Part shown: positions 18,770 through 49,135 of the stretch, in pieces
Layout of the letters: every line of letters begins with the position of its first letter
How positions within the stretch are numbered: the stretch's first letter is position 1
NCBI RefSeq assembly: GCF_022605165.1
Contig: NC_063072.1
Location: forward strand, 62,001 to 126,000
DNA: 64,000 bases
DNA from: Purpureocillium takamizusanense
Lineage: Eukaryota > Ascomycota > Sordariomycetes > Hypocreales > Ophiocordycipitaceae
Direction of reading: 5' to 3'
Notes under the pieces: generated by a model
Told to the model about the DNA's origin: nothing
Database searches by the model: none
What the model saw: the letters and a program-made list of their open reading frames with translations, nothing else
Position numbers and translations under genes: made by a program

Positions 18770-19396
18770 TGGGGCGTGTGAATTGAGCCCCTGGAGACGC
18801 TGATGAGCGGGCTTGTTGCGCTTGTTCATTCAATCATGGGCTGTTACGTAGTGGCAATTTTTCGGCCGATTGCCGTCAAAGCCATCGTACCTGGCAGAGG
18901 ATCACGGCTCATCGTTGTCTGAGCATCAAGATGTTCCGGCTCAGTGACAGGCCAGGAAAGGTTGGCACCTGAGCACACGCCATCGACATCGACAGCGTGT
19001 AAGCTGTTAGTTGACTCACTCATTATTTTGTAGTGTCTCGATCGTGATACGGGACTGTAACCGTCTCTTCATGAGCTTAATAGTCCTAAATAACACTTGG
19101 ACGCTCTCGTCCGTCAACAGCATGGTAAACAACAGCATGGTAGATGCTAGCTGTGCTCATGCCCCTGGCAGTCACGCACCTTCACCTCCAACCCCCATCT
19201 TATAGTGGGGATCAGTGAGGGGGCGCGGCGGAGCTCCAAGCACCAGTGGTGCTCGTTTCCCAGATCGTACTTCGTATTTCTTAGACCAGAGTCCTTGCCT
19301 GCCGGCTTCGTTGTATTCCCCAGACTTTGCATGTTCTTCGGACAAGCAAAGTCGTCGCCGCCACCCCGATGAGCCAACACATGCGGCGTAGCTTTC
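18770..19396. other. Intergenic
   Basis: 3' flank of the transporter gene and promoter of the Zn2Cys6 gene. No other coding signal is seen. Confidence 0.5.
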
Positions 19397-21844
19397 ATGG
19401 CAAGTCCTAATTATCTCCCGGCTTCCCATAGCCATGGCAGCCGTGCACTTATATCGTCTAACTGTGTGGTGGCAGGCTGCTTGACATGTCGCAGGCGCAA
19501 GGTCCGCTGCGCCGGCGGAGATCCCTGCCAGAACTGCTCCCGGATGAACATTGCCTGCCACGCACCGTTTGATGCCAATTGGAAGGTCACGGTCGGTGTC
19601 CTGAACGACGATGATGGAAGCAAGGCCGCGAGTTCCAAGCCGCAGAAGACGCGACAAAGCAGCAGTGCCCCAGCATCAAAGCCTTGCGACGCACCGTCAC
19701 ACGCAGAGCCATCATCAGAAACGCCTCTCGGCACAAGCAACGGGCAGACTGACGAGATTTCCCCGGCACAGTTGCCGACTTGGTCGGTTGAGCAAGAGGT
19801 ACATCACGGCCAGGATGTAGAAGTCACCAGCAGGCCAACGCCCTCCATTGCCTACGACACTACGGGCATACTCCCGTGGAACAGCACCTGGGACTTTGAC
19901 TTTTCTCTTGATCCGTGGCTTGACTGCGCCACGCCCTTTACCGCTCTCGAAACTTGGGACATGGACATGGCACAGGCGGCGGCGACTGAGGTGTCACTGT
20001 CCACGCCGACTCTGCCAATCTCGTACTTGAGCTCGCAACACAGCCGTTCGACAGCGCCTCCCTTAGACGACGCAGGGGTCGTTAATCGACAAACGAAGTG
20101 CCTGAAACACAGCACATCGCTAGATGATGAACTTACACACGAGCAAAGCATCAACTGGGACGACTTCTTCTTTCAACACTACGAGCACTGCATCAGCGGC
20201 TGGGCTTACTCCCTGAAAGACGACGGCAAGGGCAACTATCTCCGCTTCGTCCTAGACTTCATACGAGGACCCAACGTTCACGCCGAGTCGCCCTTCAGGC
20301 TTGCCGTCCTGGCGTGGACGGCGAAGCACTGGGCCGTGGCGTGCCAACCGGGCGATGATACCTGGCGGCAGTATTACTCCCGCGCGACGGCGGCACTGCA
20401 AAGGCTAGACGCCCAGGGTCCGACCGATTCGCCGGAAACATGTTCTTCAGGGCAGCGGGTGATGGCATCCGCTTCCGAGGTCGCCATATGCACTGGCCTG
20501 TTCCTCTGTCGTTGCGACGTGCTCAACGACGACCTCGGCTCCATCCTGAACTACCTCGAGACGCTGAAGCTGCGGCTAGACGCCGACCTTGACGGCGTAG
20601 AGCTCTCTGCATTTGCCAGTCAAATCCTTCTCTGGCTCGGCTATCTCCACGTCCGGGTGTCCATCTTCGCCTCCCCCTGTCCGGCGCCGACAACCACCAA
20701 CAACATCACCGCCGTATCGACGACCCTCCTCGACGCCATCGCTAGCCACCCGAGCTACCAGCAGATTCTCGATCGGTCCCAGACATATTTATCTGAAATA
20801 TTCGGCGACTCGTATCCACCAGAGGAGCTACTTCACGACGCAGAAAAGGCCCCGGTGGCGGTGCGAACCCACGAGACCTTTTGTCTCATCGCCAACATGT
20901 TGCGCTATCGTTCGTGGAAGCGCCTCGTCGTGCAGCACGGCGGCGGCGACGAGTCTGCGCAGCTCGAGCTGGACAACGCCAAGGTCGAGGCAATCGACGC
21001 GGACATGAGGAGAATGGACGTCGAGTTTGGGCTCGCCATGGCGACGAATCCATCCGCTGCCGTGTTGCGGCGGATATGCTTCCAGCAGCTCGCCGTACCA
21101 CCGACGCGGCCAGGCGCTCATGCAACGAGATTCCATAACCTCCGATCAAGCACGTCGCCAGCTTCCGGCATCGCACTCGCCAATATGCATCTCGTAAGCT
21201 CTCCGGGCTCCACGGGCGTGACTCCGCCGCTGGCGCGGGAAACCACGCTCCACGACGACGCACCACCATTACCCCCAGATAGCTCCCTTTTGAACCGCGC
21301 GTCATCCCAGTGGCTGGCTTGTTACGCCGTCTTCCTTACGGCCAAGATCCTCTGGTCTCGGCTCCTTCATCCAACCCTGCGCAGCGAAGCGTCCGCCGTC
21401 GCCGCCGTGAGGTCCATCCTGGACATTGCCCTGCACCTGCGGCGGGCGGCGGCGGCGCACGAGTCCTCGAGCCCGACGGGCACGTCGTGGCCGCACAAGA
21501 TGCCGCGGTCGATGCTCTGGCCGCTGCCGCTGTTCGTCGCCGGCGTGGAGACCACCGACGAGGTCCACGCGGACTGGATACGCGGCTTCATGGACGAGGT
21601 CACCGCGTCGTGGGGCGGCGAGGTGGCCATGTCGGCCAAGGAGGGGCGGGAGGCGCAAGGGGGTGTTGGGGGCGTCGGTCGGCGGCAGCAAGGCGATGGG
21701 ATGATGATGAGTGGCGCGAACCGCGTTCAGACGCTGATGGGGAGGGTTCGCCGGCTGCAGGACCGGCTGGGCTGCCGAGTGGACATTGAGGGTGTGGTGA
21801 AGGAGATGGGTGCTGGTGAAGGCGGCAGAGGGTTCATATTGTAG
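19397..21844 (+). CDS. Zn(II)2Cys6 fungal transcription factor
   Basis: One long exon of 815 residues. The binuclear zinc cluster is complete near the N-terminus: Cys28, 31, 38, 44, 47 and 54 with spacing C-x2-C-x6-C-x5-C-x2-C-x6-C and the usual basic RRRKVR helix. An acidic Ser/Thr/Pro-rich linker follows. The C-terminal two thirds is the helical middle-homology type (for example LRFVLDFIRGPNVHAESPFRLAVLAWTAKHW, shown here by position about 280-310), resembling fungal-specific TF domain 2. The C-terminus has DRLGCRVDIEGVVKEM, a common ending in this group. It acts in the nucleus. Residues about 575-640 are Pro/Ser-rich and could hide an unspliced intron, though the frame stays open. It follows the MFS gene on the same strand. 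Confidence 0.87.
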   Translation: MASPNYLPASHSHGSRALISSNCVVAGCLTCRRRKVRCAGGDPCQNCSRMNIACHAPFDANWKVTVGVLNDDDGSKAASSKPQKTRQSSSAPASKPCDAPSHAEPSSETPLGTSNGQTDEISPAQLPTWSVEQEVHHGQDVEVTSRPTPSIAYDTTGILPWNSTWDFDFSLDPWLDCATPFTALETWDMDMAQAAATEVSLSTPTLPISYLSSQHSRSTAPPLDDAGVVNRQTKCLKHSTSLDDELTHEQSINWDDFFFQHYEHCISGWAYSLKDDGKGNYLRFVLDFIRGPNVHAESPFRLAVLAWTAKHWAVACQPGDDTWRQYYSRATAALQRLDAQGPTDSPETCSSGQRVMASASEVAICTGLFLCRCDVLNDDLGSILNYLETLKLRLDADLDGVELSAFASQILLWLGYLHVRVSIFASPCPAPTTTNNITAVSTTLLDAIASHPSYQQILDRSQTYLSEIFGDSYPPEELLHDAEKAPVAVRTHETFCLIANMLRYRSWKRLVVQHGGGDESAQLELDNAKVEAIDADMRRMDVEFGLAMATNPSAAVLRRICFQQLAVPPTRPGAHATRFHNLRSSTSPASGIALANMHLVSSPGSTGVTPPLARETTLHDDAPPLPPDSSLLNRASSQWLACYAVFLTAKILWSRLLHPTLRSEASAVAAVRSILDIALHLRRAAAAHESSSPTGTSWPHKMPRSMLWPLPLFVAGVETTDEVHADWIRGFMDEVTASWGGEVAMSAKEGREAQGGVGGVGRRQQGDGMMMSGANRVQTLMGRVRRLQDRLGCRVDIEGVVKEMGAGEGGRGFIL

Positions 21845-22149: not shown

Positions 22150-23144
22150 TCAAATGCCGCGTAGGTAACAGGCCGTTGCTACCATCAATGCGAGGCAGAA
22201 TGAAAGCAGCACGCAGGGAACGACGACTCTCAATAGGCCGCGTCCCGAGGCTGGTGTATTGATTGCCAACATTCGCCTTGCAGGGGTACAAGGTCGCGCC
22301 GCTGAACGATATCTGGCCACATTCAGCGAGTCTGAAGAAGACGGCATGTGTTGCTCAGCAGGGAAACAGGGGGCGCTGGCTGAAAGTCCATAGTGCTGTA
22401 GTAGGGAAGAAGGCCGGCAGAGCCGTACGGGCTCGGGATGCTTGACCCCAGACTGCGCCGAAAGTATAAGTTGCCTCGGGAGCGAATAAATAATTTCTCC
22501 GTTGAACGAGGCAGCAACTCGGAAGGACTGCCTCGAAAGACTGGGGACCGGGGTCGCGACTGGTCTCTCTGGGTCTGTGACCGTTCTTGATGCATTGTTA
22601 GATTCTGGCGGAGGCGGTAGATGGTGTATATTGTCAAACACCTTATCACGGGCCATGGACAGCTCGTCGCTGAATAGGGCAGCCTGTACAAGCTGCCCTA
22701 TTGCTACCGAAAATGAGACCTGCGAGATACCGATTCTGACCAGAATGTCGGGAGTGTCGTCGATGTTATAGGCAATACCTATTAGAGCTACGGTAGTTTG
22801 AGCGATCTATGATACGTCAGTCACTGGACCTGAGTTATGCAAACGCCGTAGGGGACGCACCACATTGAAAGATAACCATGACACCACGAATAGCCGGATC
22901 CTGAGGCGATGTGTCACCCAAAGCAGCCGTACTAATCGAATAAGGCTCTCGCTTTGCAGGATCACAGCAAGCACCACACCTGCACCATATTACGGCAAGG
23001 GCCGAAGGGATATGCTTTTACATAGCGCTGCCTAGATCTCGGCTCATTGGTTTGACAACGCTCCGACGACGCGACCTAGTACGGCTCTTCGAGGTCCCCG
23101 GCGATGCATACGTCATCGGCTGGCGACGGGTCTAATATCCCCAT
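22150..23144 (-). pseudogene. Putative multi-spanning membrane protein, decayed or with unresolved exons
   Basis: A convincing last exon (22806-22150) starts after CATAG and reads IAQTTVALIGIAYNIDDTP..., with two hydrophobic segments (VALIGIAY, VSFSVAIGQLVQAALF), a polar Pro/Ser region and a final hydrophobic helix (VVPCVLLSFCLALMVATACY). An upstream exon 22979-22861 (GCAG...GTGCGT) joins in phase and adds a basic, Leu-rich segment ending SWLSFNV. However, the same DNA in another frame reads equally well (CDPAKREPYSISTAALGD...RGVMVIFQC). A short ATG frame at 23144-23076 (MGILDPSPADDVCIAGD) looks like the start of a fungal membrane protein but hits a stop after 22 residues. Either a frameshift has damaged the gene or I have not found the right intron chain. 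Confidence 0.4.
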
Positions 23145-24017: not shown

Positions 24018-24917
24018 TCAGATTGATTGTCTATGCTCACTACACATGAGCCATCTCAGCACTTCCCTAACCCTCCTTCTACGCCTAAATTGGCGGCTTG
24101 CTAGACGCTCTGGGGCAGCTAACTTCGCTACATGATCGAAGACCTCCTGAATGCCTTCACCGCTTTCGCCAGAGCATTCGAGATATAGATCCGCTCCAAT
24201 GCTTTTTGCAGCCATCAACCCTTCTTCGGAATCTACGTAGTCCGTGGGCCTTTCCGTAAGCCGACCAGTAGCCTCTGCGAGCGTCCGAACGTCTTTCTTC
24301 AGCCCAAGGAGAATAGTCGGGATGCATGGGTCAAGATTGGCCAAATCTGCCTTCCACTATCGCATTATCAGTGCCGCTTGAGCAACGCCTGGTGACTATC
24401 ATGATACGTACCTTTGCAAGAGAGTTCTCTAAGGTATCAGGGTCGCCAACAGAGAATGCAAGAATGATTATCACGTTTCTTGAGCCTGACAGTGCCCGGA
24501 CGTATCCTTCCTCCATCGAATGTTGAATCTCGCTTAGCGAGAGTTGAACGGCTTCGTCCTCGTGATAATGATCGATCACATAGTTGTCGAAAATGTTTGG
24601 TGGCTGTGGCCGAGGTCATCAGTCTAGTACTCGACTCGTGGCCGCAGCATGGAGTTGTCATTATCTGCTGCTTACATGATACTGTTTCCAGGCGTATTAG
24701 CTGAATGACGCTGCACAACTATTGTTCAGAACCCCAAACCTTTGGAAAATAACCCAAGGCAAAGGCACTCAGAAAACTTGTTTTCCCGCAAAACCGGTCT
24801 CCAACAACGAGCACTTTCCTACAGAGGGTTAACGTTGGCCGCGCCGCAAATAGGCAAATAGAAGAAGGGAGGCAAGACGGGGTGAGGTTACCATCGAATC
24901 AACCTTTGCGATGGCAT
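24018..24917 (-). CDS. Divergent Rho-family GTPase-like protein with degenerate switch motifs
   Basis: Four exons (24917-24892, 24818-24740, 24603-24412, 24356-24018) with GTAACC/GTTTGG/GTACGT donors and TAG/CAG/TAG acceptors give an uninterrupted 211-residue protein, normal Rho length. Rho landmarks are clear: KVLVVGDRFCGKTSFLSAF (P-loop, residues 10-28), NIFDNYV (switch I), ILAFSVGDPDTLENSLAKWKADL, IPTILLGLKKDVR (base-binding KKD) and a final YLECSGESGEGIQEVFDHV. Key catalytic positions are changed. The Gly12-equivalent is Arg17, the switch I Thr is Asn, two residues before it are missing, and DTAGQE is replaced by EIQHSM. The tail is basic (five Arg) but ends CSEHRQSI, so no CaaX box is visible. 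It probably does not hydrolyse GTP normally. A TTTATATAG lies about 90 bp upstream. Confidence 0.8.
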
Positions 24918-39697: not shown

Positions 39698-41734
39698 TTA
39701 GCAAACGCCCTTAGGAACATTGAAACTATCGACAGGCCGAGGCGTGCGAAATAACCCCCCGGCAAACTTTGCGCCGTCGCCGAGACCACGCTTCGCAAAT
39801 GCCTGCCATAGCGCGCACTGGTTGGCCCCTTGAGTAAGAGCCTTATCTGCATCAATAATGGCGTCGCGCCCGGCGACCATGCCTGGGTTGCAAGGCTGGA
39901 TGGCCATGCCGGTCATAATGAGCTTCATAGCAAGGTAGCGGCCATCCTTAGGAACGCCGGCAGAGTCGAACTCAGGGAAGTCCTTATCGGTAATGCCATG
40001 CTTCTCAATAAGGTTCCAGATAACCTCATATAAGATAGTTGCCCAGATGGTTCCTATATAGTGACTCTCTTTCCGTTTGTTAATGTCGGAGTATAAAAAT
40101 GGGTTGGTAACATTGCTAGTAGAGTAGGGGTAGCCGCGGATGCCTCGAGGCTTATTAGCGGCCCACGAGGCAATAGTATAGTCCTTATGGCGATTATCAG
40201 TAGCCTTAATTCGGACCGCTATAGCCATAAAGTCGGACCAGCCTTCGTTCAGGCCGCTAGACTCGAGACCGTCAAGGCAGCCAGCGTTACTAGGGCCGCC
40301 AGTCAACCGGCTAGACACTACGAGAAAAGTCAGTCCCGTGCGTTATTAAATACAGAAACCTTGAATATTGCACTTACGGCCATGAGTGTACTCGTGGAGC
40401 ACGATATCAGTATCAAACGAGCCGTCGCGCGCCGGCATGGAATTAGTCCACATTTGTATCCCCATGCGGGCCATCTCGCCGTCAGGGGGCGCGATAAAAT
40501 AGGCATTCTTAGTGCTCGACCCGTCTTGAGCATCGAGCATAACGAAGTCTTTGTCGAGGCCACCCTTGCCGTTGTTATTAAGCTGGAAGTTACCGGCCTT
40601 CTCGTCGAAGCCAAGGATATATAGTAGATCGTGGTACTTGTTGACAGTATAGAAGAGCTGTGTGATAGACGCATCTCGGTAGGCTTCGTTATTGGATTCC
40701 AAAGGCGAGTATTCGTATACAAACATTCTACTAGGGCTAGTAGGTCTGTAGAGATTCGTGATATCATTACCACCAGAAGGGTTCGCGTGCGCAACGGCGT
40801 TATTGCCCATAGTCGTCGTAAAAAATTCTTTGCCCGCACCATTCCACGTAAAAGGCGATGCTGCTAGGTTCCAAGGGTCCTTAAGAGAGCTTCGCTGGCC
40901 CTCGGCTGGATTGTTTACGTTCCAAGGGTAGACCTTGTATGTGGCTAAATCGTCCACGTAGTTAACAACACCGTATACAGTCTTGGTGTTAAACGCATCA
41001 ACGTAGGTTAGGAGCCAGTAATCCTTGATAACGATCTCGACTCTCCAGGCTAAAAATAGCTTTTTATTCTGTTGCTGAAAGTAGACGAGCTTGGCGTTAG
41101 GGTCACTAAAGGCGCCCTTAATGCCCTTAATAGTAAACTCGTGCTTCTTGTCATCTTTAGCCTCGGCCTTTCCGTTTTGGATCGGTATTCCTAAATCGAG
41201 TGTATTGATGGCGCCCTTGAGGGCAGCCACGGGGTCAGAGAAGTCATCCTTATTAAGATTCTCTTTAGGCGCGTCGCCCTTGAAAAAGCTATTGCCATAT
41301 GAGAGAATCTTGCCGTCCTTAACCTAGAAGTTGTTAGGCTTGAATTTATATGCATAGTCCTAGTAACTTACGTTAACGTTAAAGTCGGCATTATCAATGT
41401 CAATGCCGTATAGGGTCTGCTTGAAGTGTACGAAGGCAATGCCGTCAGAGCTGACGTAGTGGTCATTGACCAGGCGGTATTCAGCACCGGAAGCAATAGT
41501 CTTCACCAGCTCCTTGGCGGTTTCAAGATAGTCGCCGCGCTTATTGATGGAGGCAACTGAGCTATCAGTCTTAACACTCGACGAGGACGTATACTCGGAG
41601 ACCTGAGGAAGGCGGAACTTTTCAAGGTCGATACCACGCTTAGAGGGAGACGACTCATTGGGTTCCTGACTCCGAGGGTGGGCTTGCACGCTAATAGCGA
41701 GTCCTATGAGGCTGAGAAGAAGGAAAGACTTCAT
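39698..41734 (-). CDS. Extracellular metalloproteinase, fungalysin (M36)
   Basis: Exons 41734-41372, 41323-40378 and 40317-39698, with donors GTAAGT and GTAAGT and acceptors TCTAG and CGTAG, give 642 residues, the usual length. MKSFLLLSLIGLAISVQA is the signal peptide; the ATG at 41791 is too close to the TATA at 41813-41819 to be the start. A long FTP-type propeptide precedes the catalytic domain. The zinc site is HEYTH (His431, Glu432, His435) with the third ligand Glu461 in NEGWSDFMA. YRDASITQLFYTVNKYHDLLY and GFDEKAGNFQ are canonical. The enzyme digests protein outside the cell. Codons end in A or T far more than in neighbouring genes (many ATA, TTA, GCT), so base composition is out of step. 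Confidence 0.93.
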
Positions 41735-45828: not shown

Positions 45829-46195
45829 ATATACAATGGGTACCCGGCGGAAATTCAACCTCCTGAGAGGGAATGCTTCGCGCCACTTTGCTTGGGACGG
45901 CCCGAAAAAAACAGGGTTATACTTGAAAACGGGGGAGTGTTCCGATCATTGAACCGAATTGTGCTGAGCTTTGGCTGAGCGGCATATGCGGCCAGACCAG
46001 AGCTAAATCAGCTAATCCCGCAAACGTGGTCCAGCCCGAGCCCGTGGACGAGCGGCGCGTTCTCGTAAGGTGGTAGAATGGGTTGGCCGTGGTAGGAAAA
46101 TGGGGTTTTGCGACGTTGTTTTTAGCAGACATAGTTCGTAAATGCGAGTACATGTATCTGGCGTATGCCGTGAGGAATAAAGCTCCGAAAGGATT
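45829..46195. other. Intergenic
   Basis: No gene. Composition is balanced up to about 46195 and then switches abruptly to AT-rich DNA. Confidence 0.5.
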
Positions 46196-46199
46196 TCTA

Positions 46200-49135
46200 T
46201 GCCCTATTTTTTTCCCGCACTTTAGATAGGTACGAAAGTAGATTTATACTCCCTATTCTTATTAGTCTACTACTATACTCTACTAGAGTTTTCCCTATCC
46301 TTATTATTACCTTTTATAAATACTAAAAGTATTATTATCTTCCCTTCTTTAATTATAATATTAGCTCTTAATATTATTATTATATAAGCCTTAATAAAAT
46401 AGCTTTTTTTATATTAAATAGCTTAAAGTTAAAGACATTAAAGATAGATAAGTTTCTATCTTTAATAAAAGTAAGATAAGTAATAGCGGTAATATATAAA
46501 GTAACTTAATATTAAGAAATAATATAATTATAAAGATATATATAATTTAAATAAAATATACCTATATAAGATAAATTACTAAGGAGTAAAGATTAATTAT
46601 AGTTAATAATTATATATTAAATAAGAAAATTAATCTTTAAGGTATTAATATTAATAAAAGGCTAAGATAAATAAATAGTAAAAGTAAGAGTAATAATATT
46701 TAATATTATTAATATTAATACTATAAATTTCTATTATTATTACTACTACTATTACTTTAAAAAAAGAGATATACTTATTTTTTAAGTTTACTATATTAAT
46801 AAATAATAAAATAAAATAAAATAAAAGTTTATAATTATTAATAATATAAAGTATATTATATAAAAGATATATATATATTATTACCCTTTTTTATTTTAAT
46901 TTATATAATTATTAATAAATATATATTTAAATAAAGACTTAAAGGCTTTAATTATTATTTATTTATTATTTTATATTATTATAACTTTATTCTTATAGTA
47001 ATAATATTAATTTAGTCTTATTTTTAAAAGTAATATTATTTATAAAGGAAGAAAACTTTTATTATAAAGGTATTTATAATAAAATAAGGGATCTTAAGGT
47101 TTATTATTATAAGAGTATATTAAGCTTAATATAAATAATAAAGATTTATAGAAGTCTATTAATAAGGTTTATACCTCTTATTTAATAAAGAGTAATATTA
47201 GCTATTATATTAGGGCGAGAAAGATATTAAACCTATAGGACGTAATCCTCTTCGTCCTTTATTTCTTCCTATCTCTACTTAATGCGTTATCGCGTAAGGA
47301 TACCGAATTCTAAGCTATCTCTATAGCCGAAAGGTTAGTCGTAAGCTAATTAAATAGTCTTTAATATTGGATACTTATATTTACGCTTAGTTATAAAACT
47401 ATACGGCGATCTATGCCTTAAGTAAGGTACTTATATTATTAAGGCATACTTATATCTAAAGTATTAAAAATAAGGCAAAATAAATAAGTATTATCGGCTA
47501 TAATTAAGGAGGCATATTATCCTCCCTTTAACTAAGAAAGCTTCCCCCCTTTATAGTTATCCTTATAGTCTTATCTTTATAGCCCCTTTTTACCCCTAGC
47601 TATTCCTTTAGCTATTTTTCGTCTTTTTTAGGCTATCTTCCCTCTTTTACTCCTTCTTTTACTCCTTCCTTTATGCCTTCTCTTACTAATATATTATATA
47701 AATAAAAAGTACTAGCTATATATTATATTAATAAGAGAAAGTATAAAAGAAGATTAAGTAATAGCTTAAGTAAAAAACGGCTAAAGGAATAGCTAAGGGT
47801 AAAAGAGATAATAAAGATAAGATAATAAGTATAGCTATAAGTAAAGATAGACTACTTTAAAGGAATAAAGATAATTATACCTCTTTAATTATAGCTTATA
47901 ATACTTATTTTTTACCCTATTTTTAATACTTTAGATATAAGTATATCTTAATAATATAAGTACTTTATTTAAGCGTAAAAAGTTATATAGTTTTATTAAG
48001 AGCGTAAATATAAGTATTTAATATTAGAGATTATTTAATTAGCTTATAATAGACCTCTTAATTATAGAGGTACTTTAGATTTAAGAATCCTTATATTAAA
48101 ATATATTAAATAGAGATAGGAAAAAGAGAAGGATAAAGGGGATATACTTTATAGTTTAGTATCTTTCTACCTTAATAAAATATATTTATTATTATTATTT
48201 ATTTCTCCCTCTTTAAGTTTTTATTAATAATATATAAAATAAGCGGCTTATTATCTTTTCTTAAATTTATTTATTAAATAGCTCTTAAATAGCTATTTTT
48301 TAATTTATAATATTATTCCTTTTTATTTAAGTACTTATTATTAAGGCCTTTAAATATAATCGCTCTTTATTATTTAATATATATTACTTTTCCTTTTTTA
48401 TATCTTATTATTACTTCGCTTTTTTAATTATACTAAGGTATAAAATATAAAAGCTAATATAGTACTATATAATATTAATTTATAATATAGCTTAAAGGAA
48501 GCCTATAAGCTAAGTATTACTTAGCTATATAAAGCTTATATAAAGGAAATATTTATATAGCCTTATATATATTATACTTATATTATAGTTAAGTTCTTAT
48601 ATATTACTATTATTAATCTTCTTAATAAAAATAGTATAAATACCTTTTAATATAAGGGCGATTATTGTAGGGCTTTTAGATTAGTTTCCTAATAATAATA
48701 CTATTTAATAATATAATTAATATCTTTAAATATAAAAGTAATCGCTATAAGTCTTTTAAACTATTTCTTTAATTTCTTTTATAATTATATTATAATTAAG
48801 TTTTTATATATTACTCTTATTATTATTATTATTAATTTTATTAATAAGAACCTGTAAGTACTTTTTAATATAAATATAATTACTATAAGTCTTTTAAATT
48901 ATCTAATTAATAATTAAGCCTTAATTAAATACTTAAGTATTAATATTATATTATTATAAATTTTAGTATTTACTTTATTATTAATTAATTTATTATAAGC
49001 TTAAGTTATTTATATTATAATAAAGTAAATAATATTAAAGGTATTTATTATAAAGAAGTAATATTAAAGGTATTTATTAAAAACCTTTATAATAAAAAAA
49101 GCCTTTAAAAATTATAATAATTAAAAATAACCCAC
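46200..49135. repeat. AT-rich, RIP-like isochore
   Basis: About 2.9 kb made almost wholly of A and T, with TTATTA/AATATT runs, stops in every frame and no open frames over 60 codons. Boundaries are sharp on both sides (GC-normal DNA before 46200 and after 49135). Short GC-containing islands, for example 47210-47345 and 47520-47690, look like less-decayed parts of former repeats. RIP of transposon copies is the usual cause in Pezizomycotina. Confidence 0.85.
47250..48140. repeat. Long imperfect inverted repeat inside the AT-rich tract
   Basis: Arms of about 420-450 bp (about 47250-47700 and 47717-48140) are reverse complements with a spacer of about 16 bp. Bases 47430-47511 match the reverse complement of 47881-47960 over some 80 bp with mostly G-to-A/C-to-T differences. 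Innermost sequences (47672-47700 and 47717-47745) also pair. The left arm keeps more G and C; the right arm is almost pure AT. Confidence 0.8.

What the first reader, a model, noticed from the sequence alone, without database searches (positions are those of the whole stretch)
24018..24917. Rho-like protein that has lost its GTPase motifs but kept an intact gene
The four-exon model is open, in phase and of normal Rho length, yet Gly12 of the P-loop is Arg, the switch I Thr is Asn, DTAGQE is EIQHSM and no CaaX box is visible. Animal Rnd proteins (G12/A59/Q61 replaced) show that such changes can give permanently GTP-bound signalling proteins. A fungal counterpart in an accessory, repeat-flanked segment would be novel. 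It could be a decoy or a lineage-specific regulator of polarity. The alternative is early decay.
Basis: partly seen in the sequence, partly recalled or inferred. Interest (0 to 1): 0.8.

Follow-up and report, generated by a model that had tools for sequence, protein, structure and literature searches.

The report
Diverged Rho2 copy with dead switch
In an insect-killing fungus, a spare copy of the cell-shape switch protein Rho2 has kept its fold but lost its switching parts and membrane anchor; it is either a repurposed "pseudo-switch" or a gene that died only recently.

Summary
The gene is real, but its model needs correcting. The genome fits Purpureocillium takamizusanense PT3. Its introns match the genome's own Rho2 gene in position and phase; the tiny exon is absent from Rho1, Rho3, Rho4, Cdc42 and Rac here. 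With a tree (96/96) this makes it an old, very diverged Rho2 duplicate (68 of 176 core residues identical). The reported losses are confirmed: P-loop Gly to Arg, switch I Thr to Asn, DTAGQE to EIQHSM, no CaaX.

It is not simply neutral decay: codon-position identities (53/68/31%) and conservative replacements (37%; null 22%, 0 of 400 as high) show past selection on the fold, while switch II lost 11 of 12 family-wide residues. Whether it works today is unknown: no transcript data could be read, and two protein searches with this gene found no orthologue and no annotated copy. It is not an Rnd relative. Best reading: a lineage-restricted Rho2-derived pseudo-GTPase; close rival: a recently retired one.

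The parts
24892..24917 (-). exon 1, start codon at 24917; intron 1 (24891-24819) is phase 2, as in Rho2
24740..24818 (-). exon 2; holds the P-loop GDRFCGKT (24802-24779), Gly12 position is Arg, GKT kept
24676..24681 (-).
24493..24534 (-). replaced switch II (SEIQHSMEEGYVRA in place of WDTAGQEDYERLRP); 1 of 12 family-wide residues kept
24021..24095 (-). Arg-rich C-terminal tail of 25 residues without CaaX

Best explanation
It is an old DNA-level duplicate of the fungal Rho2 gene. Shown: it keeps all four Rho2 introns, including the two around the Rho2-only microexon, an open frame, the nucleotide-pocket residues GKT and KKD, and more of the family-wide residues than neutral change would leave; it has lost switch II, the switch I Thr, the P-loop Gly and the CaaX box. 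Inferred: the product is a soluble Rho-fold pseudo-GTPase. It may still bind a guanine nucleotide as a structural ligand, but should neither hydrolyse it nor change shape in response, and should not answer to Rho GEFs or GAPs. Its remaining role would be to bind a Rho2-pathway partner as a fixed scaffold or competitor, with the Arg-rich tail in place of the lipid anchor. That it is used today is not shown.
For: Intron positions 27, 29 and 93 (phase 0) are shared with Rho2, and position 29 occurs in none of the genome's Rho1, Rho3, Rho4, Cdc42 and Rac; intron 1 matches too. Tree: with 11 Rho2 proteins at 96/96. Codon-position identity with own Rho2 93, 120 and 54 of 176. Conservative replacements 40 of 108, null 22.4%, 0 of 400 as high; family-wide residues kept 31 of 58, null 23.1 +/- 3.3. 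Switch II keeps 1 of 12 family-wide residues, the rest 30 of 46, p 0.0006, post hoc. A frameshift does not explain the switch II change.
Against: No transcript evidence could be examined. No orthologue and no annotated copy was found. GC3 0.486 against 0.711 in Rho2 is what relaxed selection on codons could also give. The contrast between family-wide residues (31 of 58 kept) and Rho2-only invariant residues (23 of 63) is not significant by itself (p 0.069). Raw identity is lowest at core residues 125-138, not in switch II.
Confidence: 0.5

Rival explanations
1. Retired gene: a once-functional Rho2 paralogue, long under selection, that lost function recently and is now drifting; the frame has simply not broken yet.
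For: Catalytic motifs and CaaX are lost; no annotated copy or orthologue was found; a frame survives short neutral drift fairly often (102 of 600 runs open at 0.1 substitutions per site, indels not counted). A decayed second Rho2 copy is known from Fusarium tricinctum (P0121).
Against: Loss of 11 of 12 family-wide switch II residues while 30 of 46 elsewhere are kept is more than a short drift would do; all splice sites and the microexon are intact.
Confidence: 0.38
2. Rnd-like protein: GTP-locked, permanently active Rho signalling protein.
For: Gly12 and Gln61 positions are replaced, as in Rnd proteins and RhoH, which are described as constitutively GTP-bound (PMC4974793, passages seen).
Against: The switch I Thr and the DxxG Gly, which hold the GTP state (recalled), are lost; no CaaX; descent from Rho2, not Rnd.
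Confidence: 0.06
3. Horizontal transfer of another fungus's Rho2 rather than a duplicate of this genome's own.
For: GC3 0.486 against 0.711; identity to the listed fungal Rho2 proteins is about equal, near 40%; the AU test does not reject a place outside the sampled Rho2 proteins (p 0.167).
Against: No donor-like sequence was found, and fast change of a native duplicate explains the same pattern.
Confidence: 0.05

Closest known systems
Fungal Rho2 (RHO2) GTPase
   Same: All intron positions including the microexon, G-domain length, 68 of 176 core residues, GKT, LKKD and ECS motifs
   Different: P-loop Gly, switch I Thr, DTAGQE and CaaX are lost; Arg-rich tail
Animal Rnd proteins and RhoH
   Same: Substitutions at the Gly12 and Gln61 positions (Rnd side from PMC4974793 passages, and recall)
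   Different: Not the closest kin by sequence; lacks CaaX and the switch I Thr, which Rnd proteins keep (recalled)
PseudoGTPase domains such as those of p190RhoGAP (PMC5593906, listing and start of abstract seen)
   Same: GTPase-like domain without standard catalytic motifs
   Different: Those are parts of large animal proteins; this is a stand-alone fungal Rho2 derivative
Degenerate Rho2-like protein of Fusarium tricinctum (P0121)
   Same: A second, degenerate Rho2-derived sequence in a related order of fungi
   Different: 134 aa with much of the G domain gone; by eye closer to Rho2 itself, so probably an independent relic

Membership tests
Fungal Rho2 (by descent) | Rho2 intron map with the 6-nt microexon | tested here: met
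   microexon control
Fungal Rho2 (by descent) | Groups with Rho2 proteins in a tree | tested here: met
   96/96 among 18 proteins; 91/65 among 25 with other long branches; the branch is very long
Fungal Rho2 (as a working switch) | GDGACGKT, switch I Thr, DTAGQE | tested here: not met
Fungal Rho2 (as a working switch) | C-terminal CaaX box | tested here: not met
   no alternative last exon gives one
Animal Rnd | Closest sequence kinship to Rnd1-3 | tested here: not met
   RhoA 4.3e-30, Rnd3 3.8e-26; Rho2 descent
Animal Rnd | Stable GTP binding without hydrolysis | not testable with these tools
   needs purified protein
PseudoGTPase | GTPase fold with catalytic motifs lost | tested here: inconclusive
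   Motif loss met; fold inferred from the Pfam Ras match over residues 10-177 of the 4-exon product; no structure was predicted
PseudoGTPase | Expressed protein with a retained non-catalytic role | not testable with these tools
   no transcript data on hand

The most novel reading that the evidence does not exclude
A stand-alone fungal Rho pseudo-GTPase in current use: a Rho2 duplicate that gave up switching and prenylation but is kept as a fixed, soluble Rho-fold binder, a lineage-specific modulator of Rho2 signalling.
Probability: 0.35. Interest if true: 0.6.

Novelty: new variant of a known kind. Interest (0 to 1): 0.36.

Why it matters
If it is expressed, it would be a fungal case of a Rho protein turned into a non-switching one, with its parent (Rho2) still in the same genome, so lost and kept functions can be compared directly. 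The Rho2 microexon also matters in practice: of 21 public Rho proteins read (picked by me, not at random), 9 have wrong or missing residues at just this spot, among them those of P. lilacinum, Epichloe, Fusarium zealandicum and Colletotrichum fructicola.

Tried and rejected
Compensated frameshift as the cause of the switch II change: an out-of-frame 'DTSGH' 25 nt away looked tempting (7 of 1500 recoded controls as good for the 5-mer, 239 of 1500 for the 8-mer). A frameshift-aware alignment gains 3 points at the lowest penalty, matched by 29 of 60 recoded controls, and 0 at the two higher penalties.

A frame-shifted CaaX relic ('CVVS'): 57 of 500 shuffles as good. An alternative last exon with CaaX: none found, where shuffled downstream sequence gave 0.7 on average. 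RIP as the cause: the index is negative at the gene. Lowest-identity window: it falls on core residues 125-138, not on switch II, and 1013 of 20000 shuffles match it, so the focal claim rests on family-wide residues only and was made after seeing the data. P0121 as an orthologue: read as an independent Fusarium relic; its place in the tree is weak. Rfam and tRNA scans of the window: nothing. dN/dS: dS is saturated (ML dS 19.4, dN 0.61; three other methods failed or gave no value), so no ratio is claimed. Structure prediction was not run: the tool takes proteins that the DNA gives letter for letter, and this is a spliced product. Paper searches aimed at an earlier report of such a protein; nothing in the capped listings was of this gene or of a stand-alone fungal Rho pseudoGTPase, but the library is partial. 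A review of fungal small GTPases (PMC8146680, passages seen) does mention Ras-superfamily duplicates in Laccaria that lost motifs and became pseudogenes or gained new functions, so the general idea is in print.

Full report
What is there. The window is C5:62001-126000 of a 35.57-Mb, 14-contig fungal genome, so the gene lies about 86 kb from a contig end. Assembly size, number of scaffolds, largest scaffold (6.1 Mb) and N50 (3.09 Mb, the length of C4) match Purpureocillium takamizusanense PT3 as published (PMC9302088, whole text read; contig lengths). The identification rests on these figures, not on a name in the data. The DNA of 24018-24917 matches only itself in the genome.

Gene model. A site of that quality arises in 56 of 20000 shuffles and 99 of 20000 Markov sequences of the intron; with a relaxed donor, in 1487 of 20000. 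The donor of the first of these two introns, GTTTGG, is weak; Rho2 uses a GC donor there. The result is a five-exon gene of 213 codons.

Ancestry. Intron positions in Rho2 coordinates are 27, 29 and 93, all phase 0, in both this gene and Rho2. Rho1 and Rho4 share 27 and 93, Rac shares 93, and position 29 occurs in none of Rho1, Rho3, Rho4, Cdc42 and Rac. Intron 1 is phase 2 at the same place in both. In a tree of 18 proteins the gene sits with 11 Rho2 proteins at 96/96 on a very long branch. In a first tree of 25 proteins the corresponding support was 91/65, with another long-branched atypical protein (L040) drawn in. Whether it split before or after the sampled Rho2 proteins diverged is not resolved (AU p 0.167). 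Because the introns are kept, it is a DNA duplicate and not a retrocopy.

What was lost and kept. Over 176 gap-free residues, 68 are identical with own Rho2. GDGACGKT became GDRFCGKT, YIPTVFENY became HPPNIFDNY, WDTAGQEDYERLRP became SEIQHSMEEGYVRA, GLKKDL became GLKKDV and ECSS became ECSG. There is no CaaX, and no alternative last exon gives one. An Arg at the Gly12 position is natural in Rheb (recalled; one search did not bear on it).

Selection. Codon-position identities with Rho2 are 93, 120 and 54 of 176, where base composition alone gives 28, 26 and 25%. The third position is near saturation while the second is well kept. This sums both branches; Rho2 itself is conserved (own Rho2 matches 10 orthologues at 148-165 of 176), so most amino-acid change belongs to this gene. 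Against a null of neutral change with stops forbidden, conservative replacements are in excess (40 of 108, 37%; null 22.4%, 0 of 400 as high). Residues invariant in own Rho2, 10 orthologues, human RhoA and own Rho1, Cdc42 and Rac ('family-wide'; Rho3 and Rho4 were not in this set) are over-retained, 31 of 58 against 23.1 +/- 3.3; residues invariant in Rho2 only are not, 23 of 63 against 24.3; the direct contrast of the two is not significant (p 0.069). Within the family-wide set switch II keeps 1 of 12 and the rest 30 of 46 (p 0.0006, post hoc). Plain neutral change to about 39% identity leaves the frame open in 5 of 600 runs before indels are counted. So the fold was under selection for most of the gene's life and the switch was not. 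The data cannot say whether selection has stopped since.

Relatives elsewhere. A profile of this gene plus Rho2 finds 6476 proteins; the 120 listed are 29-42% identical to this gene. Searches with this gene alone found nothing at E <= 0.001 among 803 candidates (four-exon form) and one weak hit among 108 (residues 78-190 of the five-exon form, E up to 10), a 134-residue degenerate Rho2-like protein of Fusarium tricinctum. The search needs shared 5-residue words, so an orthologue below roughly 55-60% identity could be missed (my estimate). No annotated copy of this gene itself came up; I did not check whether this species' proteome is in that database.

Surroundings. On the plus strand from 25850 lies a serine carboxypeptidase gene (Pfam S10, 5.7e-48) whose second part is open in another frame after a probable intron. 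A Zn2Cys6 regulator gene lies at 19373-21841. The stretch 22-26 kb has 50-56% GC, lower than most of the window, and no RIP signature. One 228-bp stretch at 22737-22964 has a 78% copy on C9 and 23027-23115 a 76% match on C8; 24918-26000 matches only itself.

How it most likely works. The GKT and KKD residues that hold phosphate and base are kept, so the domain may bind nucleotide as a structural ligand. Without the switch I Thr, the DxxG motif and the Gln it should neither sense nor hydrolyse the gamma-phosphate, and with switch II replaced it should not be driven by GEFs. Without CaaX it would be soluble, or held by its Arg-rich tail. The likely role is a fixed binder or competitor in the Rho2 pathway. 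All of this paragraph is inference from family knowledge.

Verdict. A real, intact gene with a corrected model: an old Rho2 duplicate with a dead switch, not an Rnd relative and not simple neutral decay. Present-day function is about as likely as recent retirement. Interest is moderate.

Noticed in passing
L040 (G000:C5:1355954-1356576, minus): A second atypical Rho-like gene in the genome: P-loop GDEKCGKT, DTSCPD in place of DTAGQE, but with a CaaX-like end CTVL. One intron of the automatic model has a poor acceptor, so its first half is uncertain.
   Followed up: partly
P0015, P0016, P0047, P0048, P0050, P0052, P0058, P0083, P0115 (public Rho2 proteins): 9 of 21 public Rho proteins read have extra, wrong or missing residues exactly at the Rho2 microexon, so gene models of Rho2 are often wrong there.
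   Followed up: partly
P0121 (Fusarium tricinctum): A 134-residue 'hypothetical protein' that reads like a decayed second Rho2 copy.
   Followed up: partly
window 46001-49000: AT-rich block, GC 16-25%, RIP index 0.98 to 1.39, with inverted repeats 47245-47387/48001-48143 and 47417-47480/47910-47973: a strongly RIP-mutated stretch.
   Followed up: no
window 39701-41323, minus: Fungalysin (M36) metallopeptidase in two abutting open pieces at about 49-54% GC beside a stretch with mildly RIP-like indices at 40-44 kb; introns or breakage not examined.
   Followed up: no
window 22737-22964: 228-bp stretch with a 78% copy at C9:988027-988254 and a nearby 89-bp match on C8: possibly a small dispersed repeat.
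   Followed up: no
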